A DNA stretch of 64,000 nt. Source: Paramacrobiotus metropolitanus. Lineage: Eukaryota > Tardigrada > Eutardigrada > Parachela > Macrobiotidae. The position numbers and the translations under genes are program-made. The stretch lies in assembly GCF_019649055.1 (NCBI RefSeq), contig NW_026570253.1, positions 1,054,001 to 1,118,000 of the forward strand, in the 5' to 3' direction. Under the pieces are notes generated by a model that worked only from the letters and a program-made list of their open reading frames with translations, searched no databases and had not been told where the DNA came from. Positions 18,376 through 54,300 of this stretch are shown here, one piece after another; the stretch's first letter is position 1, and each line of letters begins with the position of its first letter.

Positions 18376-19516
18376 TCGCCAAAAGTTAGAAATTTTTTTG
18401 TACAAGAATTGTTCTTAAACGCTGTGCATTAGCTTCGCTTTGATTTAATACCAGTAGTTAGTAACTTGCAATTGGTAATCTACGTAATTGGTTTCCGCAG
18501 AAATTCGTATTCCGCAATCCGCAAGTACTCCGCAGTTTTTCACTCACACCCGTCCATGTGCCCGGCAGGTGTATAACCGTGTATTTAATCATTCAAAATT
18601 TCTTAAAACTTCACACTGGCACTGAATTTATTATTATCTAGCGTTCGTTCCTCCTCAGTTTGTTTTCCTTTAATCTGCTTGAACATTTTGTCGGAAAAAT
18701 TGAGCTGAAATGTTAAAACTTTATGTTCTAACCACTTCCGGTCAGACTCTCCTTTGTGCGTCTTTTGTGCAGTAGAGTACAAGTAGCAGTTCCGAAGGCA
18801 GTGTAGGTTGTGTATTGCACGTGCAAATACTGTAGTGACCGTTTGCACAAAAAGAAAAGAAGCCACTGGCCCGCTATATCCATCAAATTTTAAAATCCGA
18901 CTTTTAAAAACGAACTCACTTCATAATTTCCAGTCTAGCTTCGTTAGCAAGATTTAAAGGTAGAAAATGACATTATTGTACATGCACATCCGCCTCTAGT
19001 GCATGTAGGGTATCCAAGCGGGTCATTCGTTTGAATTTCCGCCGCTCCTTTCGACTATTATGAGTACTTCTATACTTGCGACGGTATTTGTAGTATTCTG
19101 TACTCCCGGAGTACTACTCCGGGATTATTGCGAAACTAAGGTGACTCACCGGCGGCGGAGTGTGCATCGATCACGGATCTCGAATTTCATAACGCTACCG
19201 CACCGTCGATTTCATTCATTCGACTTGCGGTCACTTGCCAGATCAAACTGATCAGTGATCTGGTATTGTGAGTTGACTATCATCAGTCGAAAATTTCCCA
19301 CAATATTCTACACATTAATATTTTCGCCAACTGTTTTATAAATAATAACAACCATGTTTTCGTTTTAATTTTCGCAGGCGTTGTACGTACTAATTGCTGT
19401 TCACTATTTACTAATATAGTTGCTGACAGGCGGATGGCGTGACTGTGATTTATCGTACGAACATCCGCATTTTTGTTTCAGTCGCACGTGTTGGGTGACA
19501 GCCGTCCATTAATACC
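18376..19516. other. Upstream region of SMSr, with a 21-nt palindrome
   Basis: No gene recognised. At 19104-19124 a perfect inverted repeat (TCCCGGAGTA, one central base, TACTCCGGGA) sits about 400 bp before the SMSr start and could be a dimeric factor site. An 87-codon minus-strand open frame at 18603-18866 matches nothing I know. Confidence 0.5.
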
Positions 19517-22195
19517 ATGGAGAAAGTCCCTAGCGATTTGCTGGACATTACAGTGGCCACATGGACCGTCAACGACGTGTCCAAATGGCTGGAATTGCAG
19601 GGTTTCGGTACGGATCTCCGCGATCTCTTCTCCACGCATGAAATCGACGGCTACACACTGCTGCGCATCAGCGAGAATGATCTTCGGCAGCCTCCTGTAT
19701 CTCTGGTGAAATTGGGCACCATTAAACATCTGATCGGGGCCATCGCGGATCTCAAACGCACCATCATCGCCAAGGTGGACGTCAGTAAGCCGGGGATGCC
19801 CGTGGCGGAGGAGGACGCTGAGGGGCGGTTGGGGGGAGGGGGCGGCGCGTTGGGCCCGACTAAGACGGGCACGACGGACACGGTGTTGGCGCACCAGTTG
19901 GGAGTGAGTAGCGACGGGGGGCTGGATACGTCGGATAGCGATACGGAGGAGACGGAGAGCCCCACCGCCAGTCAGGCGTCCCGTGGGCCGTCACTCAAGT
20001 TTCCTTCTCAGCATCGCCGACTGCCGCCATTGAAGCCCGAGATTGGCAAAGCCGTGCTGGCGTTTGCGTAAGTGGTGATGTTGTGTAAGCGGTGTCGATG
20101 GTATTTAATCGATTGCATAATTTCCCATCAGCACAACTTGTACGTTATAATCTTATTGATATTGATCTGTTCATGAATTTTTACCAATTTTAAAAACTGT
20201 AAAACTGGTTAATTTGTTGGTTTTACTGTAGTTAACATTACCGACCAGAAACGCTGATGTCCCGTTAATCGGGATGTCTGCTCTTGATGTAAAAAGTAAC
20301 AATAATAATAATAATATTATAGTACATTACGTATGAATTTTGTTGAATCATTTTGCAAGCTTCCGATTTCTTGTTTAAAACTGCGTTTACGATTTACGCG
20401 CCCTGTTCATAGTTACCACCAAAAAATGCTATATTGTGTTATTAGAAATATTGTTGTCTGGAAGCAGCAAATGCGTTTGCAGTCTTCTACGTCCTAGCTG
20501 GCTTTTTCAGTAACAAAATTTAATGTTTTTAAAATGGCTAATCATTTTGGGTGAAGATTCAATACGGTCACGTACGGTATGCTTTATTTCTCTCTATTTT
20601 CTCTGGCAGGTGAATGAGTTACCGGCACGCCTTAAACATAAATATTTTGTAATGGTTGTCTACAGATATCTGTAGCTAGCACAATAATTGTGAAACTGGT
20701 TTTTTGTAGATATTTCCTCATAGTGACAGTTGTCACATCCTTTGTAATGGTTATCGTACATGATCGTGTACCAGATATGGAAAAATATCCGCCGCTTCCT
20801 GATTTTGTACTGGATAATGTGCCGCTGATACCGTGGGCGTTTGATCTGTGCGAGGTCGCTGGATTTTTGTTGGCGGTTGTATGGACTTTCGTACTGCTCT
20901 TCCATAAATACCGGTAATTTCATGCATTTGAAAGCAATTTCATGCATTTAAGTGCATTTTTAAAATTGCATTTAAATGCAATTTCATGCATTTAAGTTAA
21001 TAATGGGATGGAGTAATGTTTTTTGTTAAGGTCATTTCTCCAAATTATTTTATTTGAGGTACTGAGACAATTTAATGCAAATTATCTGAATACTAATTCT
21101 GAAAATGGCTGAGGAAAAAATTTTTACATGTCAGTTATTACGAGGTTGTTTGTCGAAACTGGAGAAAGATTGCTGATCATGGTTGGCAACTAATTTGTTC
21201 GTGGAGTCGTACAGGAACAAGAAGTCAGAGTCTAGCTTACTAGATTTTCGTATTGTTGCAGGTTCATACTGTTGCGCCGATTTTTTGTGTTGATGGGAAC
21301 CATTTTCCTCCTGCGCAGCGTGTGTATGTTGATTACTTCCATGTCTGTGCCTGGACGCCATCTCAAGTGTGCTGGCAAGGTTTACTTGATTCAGCTAACA
21401 AATTTTGTTTTTCATCGACCATGCATAATTTGGTGAAATGATGTTCGCAGAACTTCGGAGATCTGCCAACGAAAGTGCAGCAGGCTCTAGTCATAGCGCG
21501 AGGATTTGGAATGTCCATTCAAGGTGTTCGTACCTGCGGCGATTATATGTTCAGTGGGCATACCGTGGTTATTACGGTTTTAAACCATTTCATTACAGAG
21601 TGTAAGTGTTAATTAGTAGTTTCTTTGCAAATTGTTGTAGGAGATGTTTCGTAGAAGTTGGAACAATGCCAAATAAGCCGGTTAATTCTGGATAACGCTT
21701 TCCGAAATTGTTTTATTGTTATGGTTATAAAACTTCATCGGAAAATTCGTCTTATCGGTGTTATTGACGTAGATACTCCTAAGCGGCACCGCTTAATCCA
21801 CTTGTCTTCCTGGACATTGAATTTGTTCGGAATGTTCTTCATCCTTGCAGCGCACGAGGTAAAAAGCGTGCCAACAGTGTGATCTTCGCATGTGCACCGG
21901 AAAATAACTCTGATTTTTGCTTGAATAGCACTACTCGATCGACGTGTTCATTGCCTTCTACATTTCTTCCCGTTTGTTTCTTTACTATCACACGATGGCC
22001 AACACGGACATTCTCCGACGCCATCCTCGTCGCGCTAATCTATACTTCCCGTTATACGCTTTCTTTGAAGCGGAAGTCTACCGTGTTGTACCTAATGAAT
22101 ACGAATGGCCGTTCATGTTGTCGTGGCCATATGTCAAGTTCTTCCGGGAAGAGGAACAGATTGTGGATAATAACGGGAAACCGAAAGGATGCTAA
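19517..22195 (+). CDS. SAMD8: SMSr/SAMD8: ceramide phosphoethanolamine synthase family
   Basis: SMSr is an ER membrane enzyme of the sphingomyelin synthase family that makes ceramide phosphoethanolamine and restrains ceramide levels. Six exons give 458 residues: 19517-20067, 20710-20913, 21262-21379, 21451-21601, 21773-21858, 21929-22195. Order: N-terminal SAM domain (about residues 10-80, [15 protein letters not shown]), a Gly- and acidic-rich linker, then six membrane segments. Family signatures are near identical to vertebrate SAMD8: [31 protein letters not shown] and [11 protein letters not shown], so the catalytic His, His and Asp are all present. The tail is lengthened relative to vertebrates (ends NNGKPKGC). 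It converges with the XK-related gene downstream. Confidence 0.97.
20925..20996. repeat. Short AT repeat with 22-bp palindrome (intronic)
   Basis: In SMSr intron 2, TTTCATGCATTT occurs three times in 70 bp. Between copies lies a perfect 22-bp palindrome, AAATTGCATTT and its complement (20963-20984), containing octamer-like ATGCAAT. Could be a POU-type site cluster or simple slippage. Confidence 0.6.
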
Positions 22196-22701: not shown

Positions 22702-25700
22702 TCAAAATTGACTGAACTCCGACACAGGTTCGCTTTCGATGTATTCGAAATTTAGTTTCTCGCCGAAAGATTCAGTTTTGTACATCGGGTTGCTATGTGT
22801 CAGATTTGTCGCAGATCCGGCAGGCGATATGGGATCATCTCTCGGTACCACATCGCCCACACCCATTTCCAAAGTAAATGCGCTGGGTGCGGATGCACGC
22901 CGGCGATTTTTGGAATAGATGGTGACGTTTCTGTCGCGGATCCGTTTGGAATGGAGGTTATTCCGAATCACCATATTATGAAACATTTTGGGATATATTG
23001 AAAGACTTAAATCGCGATCCACTTGGTGCAATCGTGAGGGCAGGAAGTGATGAGTGACAGCGGTCAGCAAAACCTCCATCCAAAAATTACCAATGTCTGG
23101 CAACCCCAAAAGTACAGCGTATTAACAGCCAGCCAGTTTTCATCATATACAACGCCAATATCATTTACAGAAAGTTAAGTTTACCGTTGTTTTGCCGAAT
23201 TAACTGCAGCCATTCGCTTGTAAGTTCACCGGGTATGCGCTGTCCGGCGTGGAGATACTCCCGGCACCGTGCCGCTAACCGGCGTACGGCTTTCATTAGG
23301 TCTTTCTCTTGTGGACCCATAGCCATCAGTCGATGCCGTTGCGTACGGCCACGTTTGATACCACCACCAAGTCCCAGTGACTCTGAAAGAAAACGATCCG
23401 ACAGCCACTCCAGCTCTTCCTTGAGTTGTTCTGTGCTGCCTGATTGGACGATCAACTTGTGAACTTTTCGCAGTCGAGGGCCCAGTTTTGGACAAAAGTA
23501 CCCGCCAACTTCTTCCGCCATTCGAATAATTTCCATTTTTGCTATCAAACCTATTATTGCGCAATGATTCTGATCAGCTACATATCTGCATCCACCAAGA
23601 AAAGCTTGTAGATATTAGTTTTTGATTTTATCGTGTTTACCTCTGCGTCGCACGCAAGTTTCCCATTCGCGCGTATAAAACGGAAACAGCACAAAAGCGT
23701 AATACAGCACATGAAAGATCATTCGTCCGGTGATCCATACAACCACCGGTACAGCAGTGACAACCACCACAAACTGATATGACGCCGTGGCGCACCATAT
23801 TCCCAGCATTATCACGGTCTCCACGAACTGGAAGACGGTCACTACGCAGAACTGCCGGGTCAGGACCGCCCGCAACCGATGCTTCCACGATAAGAAATCC
23901 GTTGGCCACGCCTTATTCGTCGGCGGCAGAATCAACGAGGCAATGGACGCTTGCACATGCTCAAACCAATCGTCGCGGTAGCGGCGCGTCCCCCGAAAAT
24001 CCCGGGCAGCCTGCCGATGATCCGGATGCTCGTTATCGGGCCGCGGAGCGGATAGCCAAAACCACAAAAATGCCGCTGTTAGATGGACCGAAAAGAAACC
24101 GATAGCTGGAACGTACACGAACGCGGTCGCATAGCCCACGGTCAGAAAGCAGCCAATGGCGATAACGCGCGGTATCACGAAAATGAAATCGAAAAAATTC
24201 TCCATGACAAAGTCGTAGACGGCCGGCTCGATGACGGTATCCAGATCGACGATCATGCCTTTCTGACCGTGCCGTGCACTGGGTTCGTAGCGCAGCACGA
24301 AGATGGCTGAAGAGCAGAGGGACAGCCAGCTACTGATGGGGATATCGTAGACGTTGGTGGCGATGGCCCGTTGCAGCATAATGTAGGACTGGATGATCAG
24401 CTGCGGGATGGCGCCGAAGTACACATCGAGATCGGAGGCGCGCGTCCGTTCACGATTACAGCGCAGGAATGTTCGCAGTTTGGTAATGTAGTTTTTGGCG
24501 TCGTCTGGAGTACTGATGTTGCGCTTGCAGGGTAAGGCACAGTACGCTTTGACCGTCTTCCATGACCTGAAGCATGACATATAAGGGGTTGATTGGTCAT
24601 AAATCTTCAATCAGAATTATCTTACGCAACTTGAAGTGTGTGCACTGTGCGATAAATTAAGCCTATAACTGACGAATCTTACCGGAGTTTTGACAGGATA
24701 ATCATCACCAACTGCTGTCACCAAAAGGCGTTGGTAACATATTTTGACTGCCTAAATCGGTACTTGCTCTTATTTACAAAATAACAAAAGCATTATAATA
24801 TAATACTTATAATTATGCAATCATCATCCTCGCTTAAACTGATAATGATCATTACTAAAATCCTAGGCAAAACTATGACCGCGGAAGGAAGAATAAAATT
24901 TCTGTATTGCACATTTCCTAATGTGTGCTGCAAATAGAAATGCCGGTACTTTATACCAGCGCGCATTGACGTATACAACGTTGTATTGTTCCTTTCATTG
25001 TGAATAAGCATCTGCGTCTGCTTATGGTTAGATAAATTGCAATCGCAATGAACTCCGAATACCGAAATTTCGTGCCATTTTTTCAGGTTAAAATATATGG
25101 ATTGTGGATGAATGAGCACCAGGCACTTAAAAAAACATAATCGATGCAATCACGTAGGTACGTAGGCAATCACAAACAAAACTGAATAGTTTGGTTTGCT
25201 AAATTTGTCCTAGTTTAACAAACCGAAACTGACATCTTAACAACAGCCTGCTGGCTTGTCATAATGATTCTCGATCACAAAATTATCATCATCATAAGTA
25301 ATTTATTATTGGGTGTCATATCGCAACACTGCAGTTGATACCAAGCAGGCTACTCTAGAGTTTTTCAAAATATAATTCTATTAATATCGCTTATTTATTC
25401 ATTTGTCAATAAAGGCCTGTACTTAAATTATGATAACAAAAGATGAAAAAACCCCAGTACAGAATATTTTTTGGCCCAACGAGTTTACTGTTGCCGGTAT
25501 TCCGCCATGAGCGCTGGCTGGTTTACGGAGAAAGACGGCAGCTTCTGATCGACGGAAGTCCGGCGCACAGAAAGCACTTGAACAATGTCGAAATCAGCCT
25601 GCGTGCTGATTATCATCCAACTCGATTACAGTTTACGACCCAGACAAGCAGCTTACATACCAGTAGACCATTCCCGCCGGATAAACCTCAAAAATGGGCC

Positions 25701-26139
25701 GGCGCAAGGCAATCACAAAATACACAAAGGAGATCACGTAGGGCAGCGCAATAAACGACACAATGGCACTGGCCCAGAAATCATCACCCACACGATAATA
25801 CTTGACCGCTTCCACCACATCCAGACCCACATCGACAAAGTAGGCGGCCAAACTGAACACCGCCCAGATGATCACCGTCCAGTGGGGATTACACACATCC
25901 GGCCAGCACAGAAACCATGTCTTAAACGTCCGCCGTTGCGCTGTCTGCCCCGTGGTGCCACACTGCAGCACCAGCGGCCGATACACAACCTGTTTGAGCG
26001 TGTTGGCTGGGCGGCCTGGTCGCTGTCCATCTTCCGAGTGTGTCTGGCTGTACTCCATAAAACAGGGGCAGTTTTCTATGGGGAAAACATGGGCAAGACA
26101 ACTTAATTGCTGGAGCGTACTGACTGGCACATGTCGCAT
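22702..26139 (-). CDS. XK-related (XKR) multi-pass membrane protein
   Basis: XKR proteins are multi-pass plasma-membrane proteins; several members scramble phospholipids. Four minus-strand exons join in phase: 25661-26139, 23641-24566, 23185-23550, 22702-23096. The product is 721 residues from the first Met; the Met at residue 28 (MEYSQ) is an alternative start. Family signs are AAYFVDVGLDVVEAVKYY followed by a long polar loop, YFGAIPQLIIQSYIML, and at least eight hydrophobic segments to about residue 460. The C-terminal 250 residues are cytosolic-looking and polar, longer than in mammalian XKR4/6/7. I see no obvious DEVD-type caspase site, so apoptotic activation cannot be claimed. It is convergent with SMSr, another lipid-related gene; a functional link is speculation. 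Confidence 0.9.
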
Positions 26140-28238
26140 TGAGACTGTGACGGCGAAACATGCATTTTGTGTTTTCCGTGTCCGCGCAGTGCGCTGGGCC
26201 AGACATACTAGTTTCTTCGCAGAAAGGTTTGGTTAAGGATAATTACACACATCCGTCGATTGCTCCACCATCGGCATGTGGCGAATTTCAGCGCGGCATT
26301 TATTTATAGATTGGGAGGATTTCTAAGTGTAACAAAATCGCGCAATGATACAGCAAGTATTTTTTTATGACGAATCTGACTGACAAGGCATTGCAGACGA
26401 GAGGGAGAGGGCCCTTTTCTCGCGCGATCCTTCTTGGCTGTTAATTTGCTCAAACATTGAGACTGCGGAGCTGCTGCCCGGTTTGACATCAGCCTGTACC
26501 GACTTAAACAATTTACATGCATATGGTGAATCCATGCAAATCCACTTACAAATCCATCCCAAACTCAACAGAACTAAATATTTACACAAAAACAGAAAAT
26601 TTGCATGATAGATCAATGACCCTTCATTAAGCTACAAAGCCTACAATGCAGTGGTTTGTTATAACCGTCGAACTCCATGCGGCTTGCGGACGGTATTCAC
26701 AACAAGCATGAGAGCTCTCCCAGTTTTTAAACAACGTAAAAGCATTTTAATTGATTAGGACGGACGCTGGCTGTTTAATGTATTAAAAAATCATTACTCT
26801 AATAGCTAAAGTACGGCATGGTAGCATCTGTGCACGAACGTGTTCGCCAGAGCTGTGTTAAACGATGAGAGCACCAAATACCAATACGTACAATAATACA
26901 GCCTCCATAATAATTATGGCAACCTTTCGAAAATACCCACTTGCATAATTAATTGATTTGTAATCAACTTTATTGTGCATATTACAGTAACCTTTTCTAG
27001 TACTAGTAAGTACCGTACAGTCAGGTCCGTACTTATGTGAAGGCATCATATCATGATCGAATGCAATGTTTACCGTTAAAATGCACGTACATGGCTATGC
27101 TCACGAACGAAAAACAGTAGTACAATAAATGCACTCATTTTCTGTCAAACAATTGTTCACTTGGAACATAGTGAACACACAACACAGTGAAACAATTGTT
27201 CATAATCAGCCAACGTGAAAAGCGTTTTGTGCTCGTACACTGTTTGCGAATTCTTAATCTAAATGCTGTTGGTTCTGTCGCCTGGATGATCTGTTATAAA
27301 CTTTTGATTGTTTTCCATTTGACCCAGTCCATTTTTGATTGTTTTCCATGATATTTGCTAAATATTTGTTAACCTTTTTAATGAAATTTAATGGTACGGC
27401 TCTCTAAATAACTAAATTCTAAAATATACACTGCCGAACAGTATACGGTTTAACTGTGGGAAACAACAATCCTTCCCCTGCATTAACATTCTTGCAGGTG
27501 ATGAGTTGTATATTGATCGTTTGCCATAATATACGGTAACCAGATTAAGTAATACGAGTACTGAACCACATAAACAGGATGACCGCGTCGGCGTTACTTC
27601 GCTACTCGATCGAGTTGGATATCGCATGTAACACCAACACTAGGTAAACCATGTGTTTAATAACAGAATCTATAACGGCAGAGGTCAGATGCAGTACACC
27701 TACAAAAGTTGTAGAAACGTGAGTTCATCTACGAGTAACAAATCTGCAGCAACTAACAAATGTAAATACAAAAAAAGCGATATACAGAAAGTTTTCTTGA
27801 TCTGTGTGATACGTAACACTTGCTGTGCATTATATATAAAGTTCAGATGAATTTTTAATTGGAATCAAGCAAACAAGTGCCAGCAATAACAATAACAATC
27901 TTGCAGACTTGAGAAACTGTACTACAGTAAATGAAAGAATGACTACGGTCCAACACCCATTGAGACAATGACAAGTAGCAACAAAGATCCCACTGACAAT
28001 CTGACACTCAAGGCTTTACAAATAGTCAGATACAAACATTTTCCACAGTACAGTTAATTAATTTGATGTTTACCTTCGGAAACGACACAACGGCTAAAAC
28101 CCTTTGAAATGAGCAAACAAAAACGGAGTGGTTCATGAGCATAATATGCTGTAATTGATCAGTTGAATTCTTACATAATTAGCGCAAAACTACCTATAGA
28201 TATTCGCGGTAGTGAGAAGGTTGATATCAGTACTGCGA
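26140..28238. other. Divergent intergenic region, XKR to dioxygenase
   Basis: The two flanking genes are transcribed away from this region, so it should hold both promoters. A good donor on the minus strand (GATTT then GTAAGT, near 26543-26553) may mark a 5' non-coding exon of XKR. An open frame beside it (26365-26616, minus) has no recognisable product. The rest is AT-rich and featureless. Confidence 0.45.
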
Positions 28239-28311: not shown

Positions 28312-29495
28312 ATGTATTCAGAACATGCTTTTAGTTACTACTCGGTTGTGGTGCTGGTGGTGGCATACTCCGTGATGGGGGCCGGCAAAAGGACGCAAAA
28401 GGTCAGCGCACTGGATGCTCTTAACGGTACGTGAAACCGATTGTAAATGTGCTACCGATCCTTTTGATTATTTTGTCGCTTTAATCGAATACGTGGGAAA
28501 CTTGAACTGCGTTTTTTACAGATTCATCTCTAGCGATAAATAATCCCTTCACTCCGTTCCGTGTATGTGAAACCACCAAATCGGACGACGAAGGTCCTTT
28601 CTACAAAGTGTACGCACCAATCTACAAGATGGAGGATCTGGAGAATGTGGGCCGTATTGAAGTGTGTAAGACGAATGTGACCTACGGCCGTCTGCTGCTC
28701 AACGGAACCATCCGCCAGAGTTCGTACGAGAACCCCTGCGGGAAGCCGGTACGCGCCATGGTGGAGGTGTGGCAAGCCAATTCGCATGGATTGTACAGTG
28801 ATGTCTCGTGGTCCAGCGGCGATTACGTAAGCTGTTACAAATACGCTCTAAACCATAAATCTCGTGTCGGTTTTCGGTTGTGTACTGATGCGTGCGTGTA
28901 GCTAGAATAATTGGATTCTTAATGACTTTTAATAGACATGTCGGGCGCGGCTAATTACCGGTAGCGACGGGTTCTATTCGTTTGCCACCCAGTATCCAGG
29001 AAGGTATCGTTATAACATGTAAGATTCTACAGGCGAAAATATTTACGGCGTTAATGAAAGCGTTAAAAGTTGAGCCTTTCTCAGGACTGGCCCGTTCCGT
29101 CCAGCGCATGTGCACTTCCGTATCACTCCGCTGGATGACAACTACGAAGCCACTGGCAACAGCTTAATTACGGCTCTGTATTTCCATCCAGGTAAGCCAA
29201 ACCGCAGCGGATGGAAATCATTAGATCGTAGACGTTCGCACCGATAGAGTACTACGCTGTACTCTTAAATATTAATGATCCGTTTTACCGCTGCTACGGG
29301 AACTTGTATATTAACAGATGAGCTACCTGTATTACAAAGCAGCTGACAGAACTGTTTGCAATTGCAGATATTTTCCTGCGACCGAATGATGGCTGCACAT
29401 TCTGCCGGTCCAATGAGCCTAGTTTAGGGATTTATGCCTCCAATAAGCGGGACCTAACCACGCTGGAAGGGACCTGGGATGTTCTTCTTGCTTAA
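28312..29495 (+). CDS. Secreted intradiol ring-cleavage dioxygenase
   Basis: Intradiol dioxygenases open catechol-type rings with a non-haem Fe(III). Five exons give 245 residues: 28312-28426, 28522-28826, 28936-29018, 29085-29191, 29368-29495. A hydrophobic N-terminus (YYSVVVLVVAYSVMGAG) looks like a signal peptide. Then come DDEGPFY, the VEVWQANSHGLYS block, GSDGFYSF, PGRY and RPAHVHFRI. The four iron ligands known for the family (two Tyr in GLYS and PGRY, two His in AHVHF) are all present. The fold is common in bacteria and fungi and rare in animals; spider mites gained secreted copies by horizontal transfer. Five introns-worth of host-like gene structure and a TATA box show it is domesticated nuclear DNA, not contamination. 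The substrate (dietary phenolics, DOPA-like catechols) cannot be read from sequence. Confidence 0.93.
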
Positions 29496-30750
29496 TCACC
29501 ATCCAAAATAATTATATAAAAGTTTACTCATTCTCGCATTCTTTGATTGATGTACTTGCAACAGCTGTTTGTGGTGTGCGAGGATGCGGCAGTTACATTT
29601 TATACGGTGTGAGCACACTACACCTACTCTAGTTCACATTACCGATTACAGTAGCAGACTTAAATGTTATGCATACTAACAAGGGCGCGGTAAACTTACT
29701 CTAAATATTGTTCGAATGCAATAACAAAATAAACAGAAATATTATGAGAGGAATATCAATTACACAAGCATGCGGCAGCTTATCTGCATAAACGGTGCAG
29801 TGCATATTTAGCTTCGCGAGCAAAATGTAATATTTACGCCTAAGATGATAATTATAAGCCACTTAACGGCAATGGACGGTTTCAATCAGCGGCTTTTATT
29901 TTTAAATAACCTTTCTTTTAAAAAAATAACTGTCCTCCTCTGAGAAATCATCGGATGGCACTGTGGAACGGAATAAACATACGTCACAATGGCGGTAATG
30001 TTGTTACATATGCTAGTGTGCTTGTTTATGCTAGTACCTGGTATCTCGTTTCAGGGTAACAGTTTCCTTGCTGGTACTGTACACAGTCATGATGTTCCAT
30101 AATGTATGTATGTAGATCTAGATCTGCTTGTGTAGGGAAACTTGGGCAGTCAATGAATTATCAGATTACCGGGTCCAACTGGTTGTGAGATGACAGTTTT
30201 TTTTTTGGTAAGCTGAATCCAAGTAAAAACCATCCCTTTCATGAAGAATGCACAAATCTCTCTCGGGAAAGTGATCAGATATCCCGAGACGCTGCGTTAG
30301 GCACGGCAAACGCATACCTTTCATCATGTACTATTGATGTATCACTTGCGCTGCTTATTCCGACAAATAGGCAACTTAATTGCGGCGTGCTTTATGGGGT
30401 CCTCAATCACGGTTGTTCTTTCGTAGAGGCTGAATTTCACTTCCGCATGCTCCGGGAAAAATCTTTGTTTAAGTTTCATGACAACAATTTTCTCAATATT
30501 TCTAATTGCTAACAGACACCTCAATATCCGCTCAAAGGTCTGCCTTAATTATTACATTCAAGAAATATGATCACACAATAAGAGTACTAGTAATTCTTCG
30601 CACCAACAACATGTCTGGCTTACAGTTGACTGATATACATGTACTCCTATGTTCCACACTTTTCGTCTATTATTTTTCCTCTCGTCAGCTCTTGTCAGCT
30701 TTTAAATTTAGTGCGCTGGATGTGGCGCTGTGGATATTTCTGAAATTAAG
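29496..30750. other. Intergenic, no gene seen
   Basis: Holds the 3' flank of the dioxygenase and the promoter side of the guanylyl cyclase. AT-rich; no supportable coding exon. Confidence 0.5.
29728..29733 (+). terminator. Poly(A) signal, dioxygenase
   Basis: AATAAA lies 233 bp after the dioxygenase stop codon. Confidence 0.4.
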
Positions 30751-33700
30751 ATGTTTTTCTTTATCTTTTTATCGTTATGGCAGCACGCTTCAGCACGACT
30801 GAATATTGTCACACTAACGGCTACACGCAACTGGGGCTCCGGTGCCGAACAAATGATCTCTACCTTCGAAATCGCCGCGGAACATATGGCCGAAAAGTAC
30901 CCGGTATTGTACGCAAATTATACGAAAACCGATCTCATGTGGGAATTAAACGGACCAAATATATGCAAAGCGGAAGGTGATTGGCTGGTGCCAATTAGGC
31001 TAGCTGAATGGTATGGCGCCAATAAGTTCAGTGATGAGAACGGTGTTACCATTATTGCCACTTCAGGTTGGTGATGTTGGCCTTTTACAAAATACCTAGC
31101 TAGTAAACATAAATATCTTTCACATAAATACGTAGCTCTACTCTTTCAGAAAGAGTAGTAAAGCCTCCATTAATTACTACTTTGCGCATTTGTACTGTAT
31201 ATGCCGATATAAGTACAGTAATCGGAATTTCTCTGTTGTTTCAGTTTGCAATTGGGCGTTACCAGATGTTTTCGACTTTGCCAGAGGTAGAAACCTGACT
31301 TTAAGGAATATTTGTAACAACTCCATTATTTTGTGTATTTAGATTGTAATGTGCTATAGCTAAAAAGTAACTGGAAATAATTGTTAATGTACATTTGCCT
31401 GTAAAGTGTAGTAAAGTATAGATATATCGATTTGTCCTTAAATTGTTTTTAGCGCCACTGACATATTGTGAAAAGCGCACTAAAACAGAAATATTGTTAA
31501 GGTGCACACCAATTCAAATTCAGATTATTGCATATTAACATGCGCGGATTCATTGGCCACTCACTGCATTACGAAAATTTTCCAATACGAAAAATCCTGC
31601 CCAAGAGTGAAAAGTCGTCCGCTTTTACTCCTTGCACCGATGGGTTTTTGACTATTTTCCTTTTTACATGAATGTTTTTATCTTTGCAGAACTGGATCTC
31701 ATGATTGTTCCATGGTATGAAACTAGCCAATCTAGACTGTTTCCAGTTTTTGACGACGGTTGTTCTGACCTTTAGCGCGGCGGGTGTGGCTATTAATAGG
31801 CAGCGTTCGCCGAATTCCGTCGCGATGGCTGCAGCCTCCTACATCATTTTTGGCGCCGCTATTGGGAAGATCATGGATAAGTACAACTGGCGCTACTTAG
31901 CAATTATCAGTGATAATCTAACAAGACTTCAAGAAGCCGGTCGGAGTATATCCGAATGCGATGGAATGTTCATTGACCTACGTAAACGGGCCATGGAGAT
32001 CCAGCAAAAAGTCTTCGCAGTTGACTCGACAGATCCGGGGTTTTCCTTCAAAAACTCGTTGCAAGAAGCAGCGGAATATAGCCGAAGTACGTTCCTGCTT
32101 TTGGTCTAGTGCTGCTTAGGTCTAGTGGTCTTCTACGCATAGTACAGTCATCTGTGCGTTCATTGATGTAATGTTTTCTTTGTGTTTTGTTAGTCATCAT
32201 GTGCTGCACGCTCTTTGAATCGATGAGAAAATTACTGGTAAACTGAAAGCAGAAACGACATGAACCAATGTAGCATGCATATGGTAACACTTATGTGACG
32301 GTGTAGGCGGATGCGTATGACTTGGGGATGACCAACGGGGATTTCGTAAGTGACAAACCGCAACTTTCTACCAAATGAATAAGTGTCAACCCAAGTGTTT
32401 TCAGTGAACATCATCCTTAAAGTACGGCGGACTTCGTTTTTATGTTTTGCCTGTTTATGTTTTTGTTAGGTATTTATGATGTTATATGAAGGAGAAATCC
32501 CAAAAGAGCCACCGATTGATGACTGGAATAAGGAAGGTGAACATGATGTTAACGAAGTATGTACGTCGATATTATTGCGTATGAAGCTTATGACCTTTGA
32601 GGCTACAATGAATGTGGCACGCGGCAAATGATGATTTTGTAGAAAGTCTATCAAGCACTGGACAATGTGCTTAACTTTCGCACACCCCATGCCGATTGGA
32701 AAAGGTTTAATGAAACGTCATGGAAAGTGAACAAAAGACGGGAAGCGAAATTTGGCACTCCGTTTAACGAAAGTTTAATCGTAAGGGCGCCCTTTGTGTT
32801 TATGGCACACCACCAAACGCATGCTAAAATATACGTTTAACTTTTCAGGTAAATGATTTTATCTTCCAATGCCACGAGGCAATAGAAATGGCTTCTCTGG
32901 TAAGGCGCCATGCTATGCATATACGAAGTCAACATGTTTACGAGAATCTTTTCCTTCCGTTAGGCTATCAATGAAACTCTGATGGACATGAACATCACAA
33001 CAACGGAGGCTCTTGGTCGACATCTACCGGTAGCCGATATGATCCGTCGAATTTCTAATCGGACCCACGAACTCATGTTCGAAAATGTAACCGTAACACC
33101 GGCCAGTGACAAGGAGCCCATCATTTGGATTCAGCAATTCGACCGCGCAGTAAACCAGGCAGTGGTAAGCCATACGAAAAACTCGTTTCGTTTATTACCA
33201 AAACAAGCCATTCACCGAAACGTTCGTAGACGGTTCTACATTACGACTATCGAACCGAAAGCTACCCACTGGTCGATCCCAATCGACCCGTTAAATGGCG
33301 CCTCGGACATGTGCCACCTGATCGGCCGCCCTGCGGTCTGCATGGAGAAAAGTGCATAAGTGGGCTCAGCATAGGGTTAATTGTGGGCGTCGTTACGGCG
33401 GTTGTACTTTTGACGGTTGTTGGATTGGTTGCCTTCACTATTTGGTAAGTTACCCATTCGTATTCGTCATAACTGCTTTTTTGTGTGTTCTTAACATGAA
33501 GTAAATGAATGCTGTAGCAAAAACCATAACTGAGGTAAAGCTTTCACTTGAATTTTATGTTAAGCGATCTTGCACCGCGCGAGTAGAGCTGCTACCTGAT
33601 TACTTAAACTTGATTATTTATCAGGAATGGTCAGCGGAAGACTAATATTAAGCAAACATGGTGGATTGTTCATCCGACCGATGTGGAGCAGGCCGGCAGC

Positions 33701-36700
33701 ATCCTCAAAGCTTCCACAGGAAAAACCAGCATGTCGCAGATTTCGGCATCTACCAGACAAGGGGGTGAGAACTTTCAGCGACGTGTCGTCATGGTGCGGG
33801 GTGTCCAGGCGGTCAAGACGCCACTCTGGTGGAACGCGCACGGTCACAAACAGCCAAGTGTCAACAGCGCCTTCATTAACTTTCTCAACTCCGTAAGTTC
33901 CTGCACAATATCGATTAACACACTTTTAATTTACAGTAATACCCATCGCCTCTGAACATATTACCACTAATAATCACTAAGTACTTGTAAAAGTTACGTG
34001 GCACCAGTATTAAAGTAAATTTGTATTTACCGGTAAGTATAATATAAAACGTAGACCTTTATGAATCTTTTTGAGTTAAAAGTTTTTGCCGTTTACAGAT
34101 CCGTAAACTGGATGCACCGCAAATTAACAAGCTTCTCGGCCTGGACATAACCGAACTTCCGCCGGCACTGTACTACGAATGGTGCAAACGCGGATCGTTG
34201 GAAGATCTGCTGCAAGCACAAGACCCGGACTGGACGCTTAAACTGTCTCTTCTACAAGATATGATTCAAGTATGACAATTTTGTGCAAAAGAATTTGTCT
34301 AATTAGGAACTGCCGTGTAAGAAGGTTGTGGTAAAAAATTACAGTGTCCCCTCTAATACGGGTCGTGTTTTAATAAGTAACGCTTTTGCTGAAAAAATGT
34401 ACAGAGTAATATAATTACGAGTATTTCTAATTGCGCAATACAAATGGGCTAAGAACTATGCCGGTATATATTTCCCTGCACAGGGATTACGTTACATCCA
34501 TACATCCGGAATTCGATTACACGGTAATCTCCGCCCCACCAAGTGCCTTCTAGATAGCCAACTGAGTCTGAAGATCTCCGACTATGGCCATCAGATTATC
34601 AGCCGTCTCCTGTCAGGATCGACGCTGCAGGCCATCCAGGACTCGCGTCCCTTCTTCCCACTGCACTCCTGGATGGCGCCGGAAGTTATGCGCGGGCAAA
34701 CGGTTCTGCAGGCCAGTGATGTTTACGCAATGGGAATCATTGTGCAGCAGATTCTCATGGGTTACCAATCGTTTAATGCGTATGCATTTGGAAGCACTGA
34801 GGACCTGTTAGCCGATGGTAATGTCAATCCTGTTTCTGGCATACAGATTTGCCATTTGGCGGAAAGCTGTAAATGAAAGAAATGACTAGGAACATACAGA
34901 TACGTACCAACCAGAAGAGTCAGCGAGAAACAACAAAAATAAATCGACCAATAATCAACGCCTCTTATAACATTATGACCTTTTATTGTACATGTATTAG
35001 GTGGTGTACGTGGTTTAATTTACGAGTTTCGGTTTACGAATTTACGGTTTCGTTAGTTGTATGTTGAAAACTTGATCACGTTTCCTTGCAGATGCGGATT
35101 ATACTCCACCTCGACCAGAGTTCTCTGAAGTTTTGCGAAACGGATCACTGTCGGCCTTCATTACAATAATACAGCGCTGCTGGCAGGAAGACCCGACTGC
35201 ACGCCCAACTATGCTGGATGTACAGAAAGTCTTTGCGGCGGTCACGGTTTCGGAAGGATTAAAAGGAACGTTGATTGAGAGGGTCCTGAAGCGGTTGGAG
35301 AAGTACAATGCCATACTGGAGAAGCAAGTTTTCGAAAAAACGGTTCAACTGCAACTTGAACAGCAACGGGCGGATGATCTTCTTAGAGAAATGCTTCCAG
35401 AGTAAGAAATTGTATCAAGTACCAACTGGCCACTGCAGTGTACGTAGAGACAAAACGTTCATTACACTACCGCTTCGATGAAGTCTTGCATAGAAAAATT
35501 AAAAAAAACAGTCGTGGAAGTCAGTTGGAATGCACATGAAAGTAGATACGATGGGCAAGAAAAAGGAAATTCTTAAATTAAAATAAAATTCGTAATTTAA
35601 ATCATACAACGTATTGCGTACAAGAAGTACCAGGTATCACAGTACCAAAACGGTACATACTATGTCATCATGGTGTAGTACCTCGACTGGTACTGCTTAC
35701 TACCAGTAGTATTACGATGCAGGGCTAAAGCAAGGCGTATTTAGAGAAATTGTGAGGAAACTTCGATCTGGCATCACTCCTGACCCGGAATACGTGGACG
35801 AAGTCAGTGTCCTTTTCAGTGATATTACAGGATTCACTGATTTCATCGCCGGATGTCCACCGGATGAGGCGCTACATTTCCTTCACAACACTTACACGCA
35901 CTTTGATAAGGTCATCGCTCACGTTTCAGTCTACAAACTGGAAACCATCGGAAGCAGCTACGTGGTATGCGTAAACTGGCTTTCTGTCCACCTGTGACCT
36001 TTGGGCTTTTCATGCACCCGTTTTATTAGGCGGTTAGCGGTTTAGTGGAGCGGATCGGCAGTCGGCATGCCCATGAAATATGTCGCTTGGCGGTTTTATT
36101 ACGGGAGGAATTCTATCGAGTCATCGACGATTCTCGACTGGGACTGCTGGTGGGACTGCACAGTGGGCCAGTGGCGGTGGGCGTGGTTGGGCTGAAACGA
36201 CCGCGTTACTGCCTGTAAGTTTATCAGTGTTTGACTGCATTCACCATTTTTTATTCTCCTAAAATCGGTTCGCACGATGCTCACAAGTACACACTAGAGA
36301 CCGAAAGTATAACGCTATGCCGCTGTATTATACCAGTCATCGTATGTACACCCAAATTTACCAAAATCAGAATCAGTATCGCGTTATTTGTTCGTTTGTC
36401 AGCTTTTTGACTTAAACACAACTGTACTCATAATTACAACAACAACAAAAACGCGTAGAATGTTGATGTTCAATAATTCTGCAAAGGTCTACTGGAAAGT
36501 AAAGGCCAGTGCTGGCGAGTACTGCTTTGAAAGGAGAGAAAGAAGTGTTATTTTAGACACAGTTAACACAATTGCAAATCATTACCTGCATCATGCATGT
36601 ATTGCGTGGCGAATGGGGACTGTGAGATTGTATGTTGTAATGACAGTACATAATAGTCTTGAACCTACTAGTACTTAATTGGTAATAGTGGATAATAATT

Positions 36701-36994
36701 TTTTTTGGATAGCATTGCAATCGAGACTTGGACGTTTTACAGGTTTGGAGATACGGTCAACACCGCCTCTCGAATGGAAAGCAATGGACTTCCTGGAAAA
36801 ATCCATGTTAGTCCAGATGTGGTTCCTATTGCCGAACAGTTTGGACATAACTTCGAGATTCGTGGCAAAATGGAAATCAAGGTACGCTAACTGTTGGTGA
36901 TTGTGTAATCTGCGGACCGTATATGCGTGCTTACAGCTGTCCTTTCTGACAACAGGGGAAAGGACAGATTACCACCTACTGGTTGAACGACTAG
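30751..36994 (+). CDS. Receptor guanylyl cyclase, cyclase domain likely impaired
   Basis: Family role: single-pass receptors that make cGMP when ligand binds outside. Nineteen exons give 1044 residues: 30751-31066, 31245-31286, 31690-31714, 31776-32086, 32194-32237, 32307-32345, 32470-32556, 32643-32780, 32849-32899, 32964-33164, 33230-33444, 33625-33892, 34099-34269, 34484-34817, 35092-35401, 35745-35964, 36030-36214, 36743-36881, 36956-36994. Order: signal peptide ([15 protein letters not shown]), ANF-type ectodomain, TM about 464-490 ([20 protein letters not shown]), kinase-homology pseudokinase (HGN for HRD, DYG for DFG), coiled linker, cyclase. The cyclase keeps [15 protein letters not shown] and VNTASRMES, but the second metal-binding Asp is gone (ETIGSSYV where ETIGDAYM is usual) and the LRIGIHSG Arg is Leu. 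It may be inactive or need a partner subunit. The exon 3-4 junction is the least certain. Confidence 0.93.
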
Positions 36995-37652
36995 CACCCG
37001 TTCGCACTCACCCACAGGAAATGCTGACAGAAGCACTCACCCGCAAGAAATGTTGGCAGAAGTTCTCTGGTATAATTGATTAAAACGTTATTTATATACA
37101 CAAGGTTTTATTATTTGCATGGCTACTCGTACGATAAAGCCTTAATTTTGGAGAAAACAGCATTCTTGGAAATTACGTAGACGCTCCTTTTGACTTTTTG
37201 CGCTGAAGTTTTCGTTTTATCTTCTATTCCGTACATTTTACCTTGGATTCGATAAACAGAATATGCAACAACTAACAAGGACTGATTACGGCGGCTGAGC
37301 AGTTTTGTTCTGTACACCAGGTTTCTTGAAATTCGAAAGAAACAGAACATCGGAGAAATATTAATCGTAATGTCCATAGAAAATAAGAAATCAAATTAGT
37401 TTTTCCCATTCATCGAGAATAGTCAGCTTAAACGCTAAACATATTATTTATAACTTGTAAGTACCCCATTAGCGCCTGTCGGCATTCAAAATTAATGTTC
37501 CAAGCGAAAGATCAAAGAAGATAATAACTTAACCACCACTGAGTTCGCTCCATTTCCAAAACAAAAAGGTTAAAATGTTACACAAAATATGCTCTGTATA
37601 TATCTTTCGCAAAGTGAATTAACACAGTTTCTTAACCAAGAAAACCGCCCTA
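36995..37652. other. Convergent 3' flanks of cyclase and BAG genes
   Basis: AT-rich spacer between two convergent stop codons. No gene seen. Confidence 0.5.
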
Positions 37653-40600
37653 TCAATTAATAAAAGTCTCTTTCGCCTGATTAACCGCCACAGCCTCCCC
37701 ATCCAATTTCTTCTCCTTTTCCGGATTCATGGCAATAACAATCCGATGTGGACCGGTATTTCCGCCCTCCGGAACGGGCGAGACGCCTTTGGCCGCCGGT
37801 GAACTGTCCTTCTTGTCTTTTTTCTCCGTCGATTTGTGTGCCGGCGTCTTAGTCTCGAGAAGATGAATGGCATCATGCACCCGCTTCACCGCCTTTTTCC
37901 GGGCATTCCGCACCTCATCCAGCCCCTCGGTGGTGACCACATCCAGCTTCAACACCGCCTGCGTGAGCAGTTCATCCAGCAGCCGGTATTCGTGGTCATC
38001 GCGGGTGCCGGTGAACTGATTTACCCGCGCCTCCAATTTCTGCACTTCACTGATGATCTCCTGGATGCGATCCAAGGGATTCTTAACCGGCGGTGGCGGT
38101 GGGGTGGTCTCGGTGGGTTTCGGTGGCGCCGAGGCTGACCGTGGCGTCTCCAACGGTTTCACCACGATCGGCACGCGGTGCACTTTGGCGTTGGGCTCTG
38201 GTTTGACTTTGTCGGGTTTCTGCGGCGGATCCATGGGTGCCGAGGACGGCCGGTCATAGCCCATGGGGATAGCCTCGCTGGGATTGCGCTGCTTGGGCAG
38301 GAAACCCATAGGAATGGGCTCGCCATCTTTGCGCCCGGGTGGCGCACTGTCCTGTGTCTGAACTTTCTCCGCTCGCATGGGCGGTTCAATGTCCACGGTT
38401 GGTTTCGGTTGGCGGAAGGTGGGCGGAGAGTGGGTGTCGCGGGACTGTCGGGGGAAGCGCTGAGGGAAAGAGGCTGAGCTGGCAGAGTCGGAAATATCAG
38501 ATGGGCTGTTGGAGGCCGCTCGGTCGATGCCGCTGTCGGAGGCGTTGGATGGGAAGTTGCGTGCCGGCTGTTTATTGGGAAAAGAAGATGACAGGCCCGG
38601 AAAGCTGTTGAAACGACTGCCGGCTGGATGTTCGTTTGACGGCTGCGCTGAGGGCGCTTGCTGCTGTTGCGGTTGCTGGGGAGGAACAGGCTTAGGAACG
38701 GATGACGTCGTCTGGCGCATCAGATTGGATGCGTCATCTTCACTGAAGATGGGGATGTTGCGCACGTAGGAACTCCGTTCGTCTTCTTTGGGGATTTTGA
38801 ACGCGCGCGGATGAAAGGCCGATTCCCGCTCACGATCAAACTAAAAAAAACATTTTTGATATCGTCACTGTGAAATATGGAAGACAATCAAGTGATATTA
38901 GTAGCCAAAGAAACGTGATGCGCTAACGATAGGAACAGTGTACTGCCAACACGTACGCTGAAAAATATTTCTGTCATGTGCAAGAAACAACGATACCGTT
39001 TAAATATTGTGTAAGTATATTATGATGATGTATCGATACCTAAACTGCTATGGTGCTACCGTCGTCAATGCGAGCACTAGCGCCACATTATTCATCGGAT
39101 CGCAGGGCTTCGCACCACAAGCTTCTTTTCCATATAATATTATTATTTTAAAATGCAGTCCACCCACCATACAAGTAACAGAAATAAGTACAGTACTTGT
39201 TTACTTACTTTTTGTAAGCCACTAAACAGGCTCTAGATCTTTGATGGGGTAGCTAGCCAGCAGTCATAAATACGTAAAGTTATGCATAAATGTTACGCTT
39301 ATTGATTTTATGGCATGTGAGGGCTTCGGAACACACAGTAATGACGCAGGTAAACCCGGCTTATAAAAGCAAAACTACATAACTTACCATCCAATTGATA
39401 CTTGTATAGAATCTTTTATGACGCGCAAAGATAAAGAGATTGTTACAGATTACTTTGTACTCCGCAGTTACTAGTATGTACTACAAAGATTTGTAACACG
39501 AAATTTTCACCTTGCATACTACACTATTTACATAATTATTTCAAATTGCAAGCTCGATTAGGATTTAGAAGCCAAAACTTGTAATGAAAACTCAAACTTC
39601 AGTTACCAAAATCATTTTTAGTGAGATAAATTATTGCATACAGTGTTTTGACCACGGATCGGACCGGCTGAAATACTGCATCGCCGCGATATACACTGCT
39701 TAAATGAAGAAAGAGCAATCCTGAATCATACTCTCAGATCATTCTAGGTTTCTAGCCATTGCGCATGGCTAAAAACAGACTCACAGTTGCAATCAACGAA
39801 AATCAATAAAAACATCAATGCCAAAGCAGCAGACTCTGTCGCAGAAAAGAACGCGACCGGAAACATCCCGAATTCACGCAGCTGACTCGCTTTCAGCCGT
39901 AGTCAGAAGCATAGACGATATACTCAACCACGACATGCGGCGATATCAGCTGACGGGATAAGCTTTTATTTGCGGAATGCCTACTGCTGTACAAGGTCAA
40001 TCATCGAGAGAGCTTGACGTGCTGCCCTAAATGTTAATGGAAAAGACTATACGGAAAAAATCGACAGGCGATAATTCGGTGCGGTTAACAACGATTACAC
40101 CCGCGGCATCTTGTAATTGTTGAATCAATTTATTATTACAAAGAAAAATTGTAATTTAAGACAAGGGATTTCAACAGTCAGAGGAAGGTCGTATTAACGT
40201 TTACCGGTTGGCACCACTTATTATTACCAAGCAAACGTACACACGTATCAGAAAAATATTACAGTTGAATGGATACTTTACCGGTCAAGAATGCGCAGTT
40301 ATTATTATCAGAAACGGCTTGAAGTCCAAGCGTCAGCAGAAAGTGCCGGTGATTCGCGGAGAAAGCAGAAGTTAAATAAATATGAAAATATTATCATACC
40401 GGTCGGTCTCAGGTCGGTGTCTATGCAGCATATACGGTAGTAGTCCCTCGAAATGGGTGTATCATTACGAGGATGCACGCAGTCGAACCGACAGTAAATT
40501 TTTTCAGCGATACCAACCGACAACCGTGCACATAGTGCAAGCGACTGCCCACCATCCACGGATGGCTGTCACCTATACCACGCATACAGTGCAAACCATA

Positions 40601-45924: not shown

Positions 45925-50216
<4,292 letters not shown>

Positions 50217-52665: not shown

Positions 52666-54300
52666 CTACATCAGACTGCAAAATCGCTTCTTTCTTGGCG
52701 TAATCAGTCGCACAGCAGTATCGAAGATTTCCTTGACACCTTCGCCCCGTATAGCGGAGCATTCTAAATATGCAAGAGCGTGAATTTTCGCGGCAACTTG
52801 CTTACCGACATCCGGCTTGATCGGTTCCTGAAAAAAAATGATCAATAACGTTTCCGGAATTTGACGTGTATTTACTTGACGTATATCGGTATATGTACTA
52901 TTTAACAATGATACAAAAGTAACAAAAAAAGCACCGCATTGCAGAACGAAACTGTTTGCGAGATTCTGACAAACCTTCGTGGTGAACAATATAGACAAAA
53001 GAAAAACCTGCATGTATAAAAATAAACTTCAGAAAACATCCTATACCATTCCTTTGCTGGCCAAATGTTGCATCACTTTCTGGTCCGACCGGAGATCCTT
53101 TTTCGTTCCCACCAAAATTATTGGTTTTTTGTGGCAATAATTTTCTAGCTAGGCAAATGAAGGAGTTACCCATTTTTGATCGTGGGTGCAAAAATCAGCG
53201 CGGCTTGCGGTTTACCTCTGGTAACCATTTTTCTTGCGCATTAATCAAGCTCGCTGGATGAGCAATGGAAAAGACCAGCAGGATAACATCGGTGTCCGGA
53301 TAACCCAAGGCCCGCAAACTGTCTGGAAATGTTTTGAGTGTTGATGCTTATTGTTAGTATGCGCACAGTAAGCATCCAATGTAATTGCGAAGTACATTCA
53401 TTACCGTATTCTTCCTGACCCGCGGTGTCCCATAATTCGAGATGCACCTGTGCATATTCAATAAATTTTACAAAACAAAAAAAATTGTTCATTTGCACTT
53501 ACAATAAGCCGATTTCGTTCAAATTTCAGCTCGTATGCTTGGTAAATACCGTATATGTACTTACAGTATCTATGCAGCTATTTTGCGCTTACGCGTACTG
53601 TATTGTACATCAAAGTCAAAGTTTGTAGAAATACAGAAATCAATAATAATTTCTTCTAACGTGCAACGGCAAAATATTCATATGAATAAGATCTGTTTGT
53701 TGACGGCGCACGGACTTATACATTTGCATCTTTATACAAATTACCAATCACTGTATGCTAATAATGGGTACCACATTGATTTGAATTGTTTGACATGAAT
53801 GCGAAACATTATTATGACATTGTTATGAAATTAATTATAATATTATTAATTGTGACATAAATTATGAAAAAAAGATTATATAATTATGTAAATGGCAATA
53901 TTATCACGTCTAGTAATGTAATGGTAATGCCATTGGAATTGTGGCATTGTGCAAATAAGAATACGGACTGTAACGGACAGTACGGTAAGTATTATACATA
54001 TTACATATGCATACAAAAGTCATATTCATATGTACATACAGTGTTACCAAGGCATAACACATTTATATTTATATTTTGCCATGCATGGTATTACTGTGCA
54101 TATAAGTGGACAGACTGTAAACTCACCGTTTTCCCGGCCACTTGTACATCCTTTGTAGTCATATCAAAAACAGTGGGATCATGTTCCACTGGAAAATAGT
54201 TTTTGGTGAAGACGGTTAACAAGGAGGTTTTACCGCATCCGCCATCGCCCACCACGATCAGCTTATACCTGTCCATTTTCGATTTCGATCCGGCTCCCAT
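52666..54300 (-). CDS. Rho-family small GTPase, copy 1
   Basis: Rho GTPases switch actin and polarity pathways. Five minus-strand exons, all phased, give 195 residues: 54127-54300, 53405-53447, 53216-53322, 53047-53148, 52666-52827. Motifs: P-loop [11 protein letters not shown], switch [31 protein letters not shown], Rho insert-like segment, ECSAI, and a C-terminal polybasic PRKKRF with CAAX box CSLM. Final Met suggests farnesylation. The effector loop FDMT differs from the usual FENY/FDNY, so partner choice may differ from RhoA/Rac/Cdc42. N-terminal extension of eight residues (MGAGSKSK). Tandem with another Rho gene of equal length upstream on the same strand. Confidence 0.94.

What the first reader, a model, noticed from the sequence alone, without database searches (positions are those of the whole stretch)
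35745..36881. Receptor guanylyl cyclase missing a catalytic Asp and Arg
[12 protein letters not shown] and VNTASRMES are kept, but ETIGDAYM has become ETIGSSYV and LRIGIHSG has become LLVGLHSG. Two-metal catalysis needs both Asp. With the pseudokinase domain already inert, this may be a pure binding or dimerisation receptor, or a heterodimer half whose partner supplies residues.
Basis: partly seen in the sequence, partly recalled or inferred. Interest (0 to 1): 0.75.

Follow-up and report, generated by a model that had tools for sequence, protein, structure and literature searches.

The report
Half-equipped receptor guanylyl cyclase gene
An animal gene encodes an apparently intact cGMP-making receptor that has lost key catalytic residues on only one of its two working faces, so it probably cannot work alone and may need a different partner subunit, as has been argued for a pair of worm receptors.

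Summary
The window holds an apparently intact 19-exon receptor guanylyl cyclase gene (30751-36994, + strand, 1044 aa, 18 GT-AG introns in my hand-built model), with ANF-receptor, kinase-like and cyclase domains. The cyclase domain is identical to GC-A at 97 of 194 aligned positions. The second metal Asp is Ser (S921, AGC at 35953). The phosphate-binding Arg is Leu (L964, CTG at 36147). I found no splice choice that restores the Asp.

In two-part class III cyclases one half supplies both Asp and the Arg (adenylyl cyclase C1, sGC alpha); the other supplies guanine recognition plus Asn, Arg and Lys (C2, sGC beta). Here all five C2/beta-type residues are kept and two of three C1/alpha-type residues are lost. 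Adenylyl cyclase 5 C2 shows the same Asp-to-Ser change (IGSTY; here IGSSY).

Best reading: a dead or nearly dead homodimer, and a C2-like half needing a C1-competent partner. This is a known kind, argued for C. elegans ODR-1/DAF-11. No partner could be sought: no genome is held. A purely regulatory pseudocyclase remains a serious rival.

The parts
30751..36994 (+). Whole receptor guanylyl cyclase gene, 19 exons, 1044 aa, start ATG 30751, stop ends 36994
   Evidence: Spliced by hand-chosen GT-AG sites, one open frame, 18 introns all GT-AG; Pfam ANF_receptor, PK_Tyr_Ser-Thr, Pkinase, Guanylate_cyc; GC-A E 5.4e-102. No transcript evidence.
30751..33364 (+). Extracellular part: probable signal peptide, then ANF_receptor-like ligand-binding region (end approximate)
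   Evidence: PF01094, residues 154-395, E 3.9e-17; signal peptide judged by eye only
33365..33444 (+). Transmembrane segment ([27 protein letters not shown]), approximate, in exon 11
   Evidence: hydrophobic run judged by eye; aligns with the corresponding stretch of GC-A
33625..35401 (+). Exons 12-15: juxtamembrane part, kinase-homology domain and dimerisation helix
   Evidence: PF07714 residues 567-793, starting late in exon 12; HGN and DYG motifs as in GC-A, and the helix before the cyclase aligned to GC-A
35745..35964 (+). Exon 16: first metal Asp D877 kept (35821), guanine Glu E917 kept (35941), second metal Asp replaced by S921 (35953), followed by S922 (35956)
36030..36214 (+). Exon 17: phosphate Arg replaced by L964 (36147); guanine Cys C985 kept (36210)
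36743..36881 (+). Exon 18: ribose Asn N992 (36759), phosphate Arg R996 (36771) and phosphate Lys K1032 (36879) all kept
36956..36994 (+). Exon 19: [12 protein letters not shown] and stop

Best explanation
This is a full-length receptor guanylyl cyclase subunit whose catalytic domain has become one-sided. Its C2/beta-type face (Glu917 and Cys985 for guanine, Asn992 for ribose, Arg996 and Lys1032 for phosphates) is complete. Its C1/alpha-type face has lost the second metal-binding Asp and the phosphate-binding Arg. Two copies together cannot build a complete active site, so a homodimer should make little or no cGMP (inferred). Paired with another receptor cyclase that keeps both Asp and the Arg, it could complete one site: partner metal face plus this subunit's guanine face. 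I therefore think it most likely works as the C2-like half of a heterodimeric receptor cyclase, contributing its own extracellular domain to ligand sensing. Shown: open gene model, domain order, residue pattern. Inferred: loss of homodimer activity, existence of a partner, heterodimer activity.
For: Five of five C2/beta-type positions kept, two of three C1/alpha-type positions lost (the eight sites and their subunits are from PMC3591389 section 13, while their placement on motifs of this protein is mine). The same Asp-to-Ser swap occurs in adenylyl cyclase 5 C2 (TIGSTYMAASGL against TIGSSYVAVSGL). In sGC, homodimers are said to be inactive because key residues are split between subunits (PMC3591389 passages). 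The helix before the cyclase aligns with GC-A, and 23 of 24 positions invariant in GC-A, GC-C, AC5-C1 and AC5-C2 are kept. The gene model is open over 19 exons, so it is not an evident pseudogene. Precedent: a number of C. elegans receptor cyclases are hypothesised to be obligate heterodimers because they lack GTP- or Mg-binding residues, with chimera experiments for ODR-1/DAF-11 (PMC8045692 section 58).
Against: No partner was found or could be looked for. No orthologue shows that the pattern is conserved. D877, the first metal Asp, is retained, whereas AC5-C2 has lost it, so the face is only partly eroded. By hand, two losses out of eight sites both fall within the three C1-type sites by chance with probability 3/28, about 0.11, which is weak. 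Only 74 of 111 positions shared by GC-A and GC-C are kept, so the domain is fairly diverged in general. In the sGC crystal structure the Arg equivalent to the lost one points away from the proposed site, so its loss may matter less. [quoted passage not shown]
Confidence: 0.5

Rival explanations
1. A true pseudocyclase: the receptor makes no cGMP in any pairing and acts as a ligand-binding decoy, scaffold or natural dominant-negative that ties up active receptor cyclases in dead or half-active dimers.
For: Loss of a metal Asp and a phosphate Arg; ligand-binding, kinase-homology and dimerisation parts present. Recalled, not confirmed: a GC-A mutant at Asp893 is dominant negative; (terms D893A and guanylyl cyclase) found 0 papers in the held library. 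In the 9bcv chain the aligned TIGD starts at 890, so its Asp is 893 in that numbering.
Against: A pure pseudocyclase has no need to keep guanine Glu and Cys, Asn, Arg and Lys, yet all five are kept. If the loss is recent, retention proves little.
Confidence: 0.33
2. A still active homodimer: one metal Asp plus main-chain, Ser or water ligands support slow cyclisation, perhaps only with Mn.
For: The first metal Asp and all guanine, ribose and C2-type phosphate residues remain; the sGC Arg equivalent to the lost one points away from the proposed site in the crystal structure.
Against: Both Asp are described as essential for metal coordination (PMC3591389 section 13); a phosphate Arg is lost as well.
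Confidence: 0.08
3. Decaying gene or wrong model: a young pseudogene, an assembly error, or an unseen exon choice.
For: No transcript is available; the splice sites were chosen by hand.
Against: All 18 introns of the model are GT-AG and a single frame runs 1044 codons; the Asp-to-Ser change needs at least two base changes; no unsplit IGD or GDxY coding string lies in 30701-37100 on the + strand.
Confidence: 0.07

Closest known systems
C. elegans ODR-1 / DAF-11 receptor guanylyl cyclases
   Same: Receptor cyclases proposed to need each other: a number of worm receptor cyclases are held to lack GTP- or Mg-binding residues, and each of this pair is said to provide essential residues to a single site (PMC8045692 section 58; PMC5225109 passages)
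   Different: Which residues each worm protein lacks is attributed to Morton 2004, which I saw only as a citation, so I could not compare residue by residue; a partner is known there and not here
Natriuretic peptide receptor GC-A (NPR1)
   Same: Same domain order; 97 of 194 aligned cyclase positions identical; HGN and DYG kinase-homology motifs
   Different: GC-A keeps all eight catalytic positions; this protein lacks two
Mammalian membrane adenylyl cyclase C2 domain (AC5, 8sl3)
   Same: Ser in place of the second metal Asp, in a very similar local motif; Arg position also changed; Asn, Arg and Lys kept
   Different: AC5-C2 has also lost the first Asp and has Lys/Asp instead of Glu/Cys for the purine; it lies in one chain with C1. 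The likeness looks convergent (inference)
Soluble guanylyl cyclase beta1
   Same: The subunit that supplies Glu, Cys, Asn, Arg and Lys to the single site
   Different: Not a receptor; its own state at the metal and C1-type Arg positions was not scored here

Membership tests
Animal receptor guanylyl cyclase | ANF-receptor ectodomain, one membrane pass, kinase-homology domain, dimerisation helix, class III cyclase domain, in that order | tested here: met
   membrane pass and signal peptide judged from sequence only
Animal receptor guanylyl cyclase | Guanine specificity pair Glu and Cys | tested here: met
   E917, C985
Self-sufficient homodimeric receptor cyclase (GC-A type) | Both metal-binding Asp | tested here: not met
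   D877 kept, second is S921
Self-sufficient homodimeric receptor cyclase (GC-A type) | Phosphate-binding Arg of the C1-type face | tested here: not met
   L964
Heterodimeric cyclase half of C2/beta type | Keeps purine pair, Asn, Arg and Lys | tested here: met
   five of five kept
Heterodimeric cyclase half of C2/beta type | Lacks the C1-type metal and phosphate residues | tested here: inconclusive
   two of three lost; the first Asp is retained
Heterodimeric cyclase half of C2/beta type | A C1-competent partner expressed in the same cells | not testable with these tools
   no genome held; no expression data
Heterodimeric cyclase half of C2/beta type | No activity alone, activity in the pair | not testable with these tools
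   needs a cGMP assay
Pseudogene | Disrupted frame or splice sites | tested here: not met
   single frame over 19 exons, 18 GT-AG introns in a hand-built model

The most novel reading that the evidence does not exclude
A receptor guanylyl cyclase that has independently evolved adenylyl-cyclase-C2-like asymmetry (second metal Asp to Ser, phosphate Arg lost, guanine face complete) and works only as one half of a heterodimeric receptor, in an animal lineage that may lie outside the nematodes (possibly a tardigrade, on weak evidence).
Probability: 0.35. Interest if true: 0.5.

Novelty: new member of a known kind. Interest (0 to 1): 0.33.

Why it matters
Mammalian receptor guanylyl cyclases are described as homodimers (PMC5225109 and PMC5023690 passages). 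Obligate receptor-cyclase heterodimers are argued for a few C. elegans proteins, and formal proof in native cells was still called for in 2021 (PMC8045692 section 58). If this animal is not a nematode, a clean one-face loss here would suggest that the split has arisen more than once, and it gives a simple complementation test: this subunit against a partner whose guanine face is disabled.

Tried and rejected
Relatives: the catalytic domain was searched with six peptide patterns in the GTDB genome collection (44 stretches matched a pattern, none confirmed) and in IMG/VR (7 matched, none confirmed). Neither collection is meant to hold animals. Metagenome contigs: cap 0, not tried.

Alternative exon or splice site restoring the Asp: rejected, except that a motif split by an intron would escape that search. 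Sequencing slip: judged unlikely, at least two base changes in the Asp codon and a separate change in the next exon.

Literature: (D893A and guanylyl cyclase) found 0 papers, so the dominant-negative GC-A mutant stays a recollection. One search (guanylyl cyclase and tardigrade) listed 6 papers; of these I saw passages of PMC1435932 only, which says that no homologues of nematode-specific cyclases were detected in tardigrade ESTs. PMC5531438, a tardigrade genome paper, had 0 hits for guanylyl or guanylate cyclase in its main text. Searches looked for other receptor cyclases lacking catalytic residues; apart from papers named in this report I saw only their listings, so I make no claim that none is in print. 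Papers were seen as passages (PMC5225109, PMC1435932, PMC8815786, PMC5023690, PMC9232122, PMC5531438), or passages plus one section (PMC3591389 section 13, PMC8045692 section 58); no whole text was read.

In one search the residue labels in the list of changed positions are one too low; numbers in this report follow. AC5-C1 is unaligned at site 8, so that cell is empty. One search repeated with a shorter query and added nothing used here. In the Pfam scan of other frames 7 of 10 frames matched a family at E 0.001 or better and 3 matched none.

Full report
What is there. The + strand at 30751-36994 carries a receptor guanylyl cyclase gene. I joined 19 exons at GT-AG sites chosen by hand; they give one open frame of 1044 residues, and all 18 introns begin GT and end AG. 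Pfam finds ANF_receptor (E 3.9e-17), a protein-kinase-like domain (PK_Tyr_Ser-Thr E 2.1e-24, Pkinase E 5e-20) and Guanylate_cyc (E 4.9e-53) in that order. The best solved relative is the natriuretic peptide receptor GC-A (E 5.4e-102 over residues 146-1042). In the cyclase domain 97 of 194 aligned positions are identical to GC-A, 89 of 195 to GC-C, 62 of 174 to the C2 domain of adenylyl cyclase 5 and 47 of 141 to its C1 domain.

The substitutions are real. The second metal Asp is Ser921 (AGC, 35953), followed by Ser922 in place of Ala; the phosphate Arg is Leu964 (CTG, 36147). No unsplit string coding IGD or GDxY lies in 30701-37100 on the + strand; the GTs after the two Ser codons cannot remove them, and the nearest earlier GT (35929) would drop the motif without supplying an Asp. 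tblastn of the cyclase domain against the window finds a single copy. A splice variant or duplicate cassette that restores the Asp is therefore unlikely.

Which face is lost. Allerston and colleagues list eight active-site positions (PMC3591389 section 13, read): two metal Asp and one phosphate Arg from sGC alpha; two purine-recognition residues, one ribose Asn, and a phosphate Arg and Lys from sGC beta, with AC C1 and C2 as the respective counterparts. I placed these on the motifs of this protein; as a check, the aligned ends given for sGC alpha-1 (6jt0_A) put D877 and S921 at positions 486 and 530 by hand arithmetic if no gap intervenes, which are the two metal Asp named in the paper. Scored on the alignments, the protein here reads D, E, S, L, C, N, R, K at positions 1 to 8; GC-A and GC-C read D, E, D, R, C, N, R, K; AC5-C1 reads D, K, D, R, D, T, H and is unaligned at 8; AC5-C2 reads S, K, S, K, D, N, R, K. 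So both losses lie among the three C1-type positions, and all five C2-type positions are intact. The local motif around the lost Asp, TIGSSYVAVSGL, resembles TIGSTYMAASGL of AC5-C2. I take this as convergence, since the rest of the protein is that of a receptor guanylyl cyclase.

How strong is that. Two losses out of eight positions would both fall in the three C1-type ones by chance with probability 3/28, about 0.11 (hand calculation), so the pattern is suggestive, not proof. Position 1 is still Asp, unlike AC5-C2. In the sGC crystal structure the Arg equivalent to the lost one points away from the proposed site. Of 111 positions shared by GC-A and GC-C, 74 are kept and 37 changed; of 24 positions identical in all four comparison domains, 23 are kept, the exception being Asn to His at residue 898. 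The fold should be sound (inference).

Mechanism. In a homodimer every site would lack one metal Asp and the phosphate Arg, so activity should be absent or very low (inference). With a partner that keeps both Asp and the Arg, one of the two sites could be complete. The alternative is a pseudocyclase that binds ligand and holds active subunits in poor dimers. Retention of all five guanine-face residues favours the first, but without orthologues or a partner I put it at 0.5 against 0.33.

What is known. A 2021 review states that a number of C. [quoted passage not shown] it adds that formal proof in native cells is awaited (PMC8045692 section 58), and elsewhere that there are clues they could also act as homodimers. 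[quoted passage not shown] The chytrid NeoR system is an obligate heterodimer for other reasons, since RGC1 and RGC2 keep all residues known to matter (PMC8815786 passages); so needing a partner and lacking residues are separate matters. The finding is thus a new member of a known kind. I saw Morton 2004 only as a citation.

Organism. No genome is held. Ten further frames were scanned: XK-related (two), BAG, SAM and Ras-family matches pass Pfam's cut-offs, two more match below cut-off, three match nothing. With the many introns this fits an animal. One below-cut-off match, Dioxygenase_C, recalls the intradiol dioxygenase clusters reported in tardigrade genomes (PMC5531438 passage), so a tardigrade is possible, but this is weak.

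Noticed in passing
28506-28898 +: Exon-sized frame resembling the intradiol dioxygenase family (Dioxygenase_C, E 5.9e-4, below Pfam's cut-off), which I would not expect in most animals; tardigrade genomes are reported to hold clusters of intradiol dioxygenases
   Followed up: partly
23618-24610 and 25636-26232, -: Two exon-sized frames matching XK-related protein, perhaps one gene
   Followed up: no
37656-38840 -: BAG-domain protein, 395-codon open frame downstream of and convergent with the cyclase gene
   Followed up: no
35884: Residue 898 is His where GC-A, GC-C, AC5-C1 and AC5-C2 all have Asn: the only one of 24 four-way invariant positions changed
   Followed up: no
19499-20068 +: SAM-domain protein frame
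   Followed up: no
48261-48608 + and 52669-53028 -: Frames matching part of a protein kinase (below Pfam's cut-off) and part of a Ras-family GTPase
   Followed up: no
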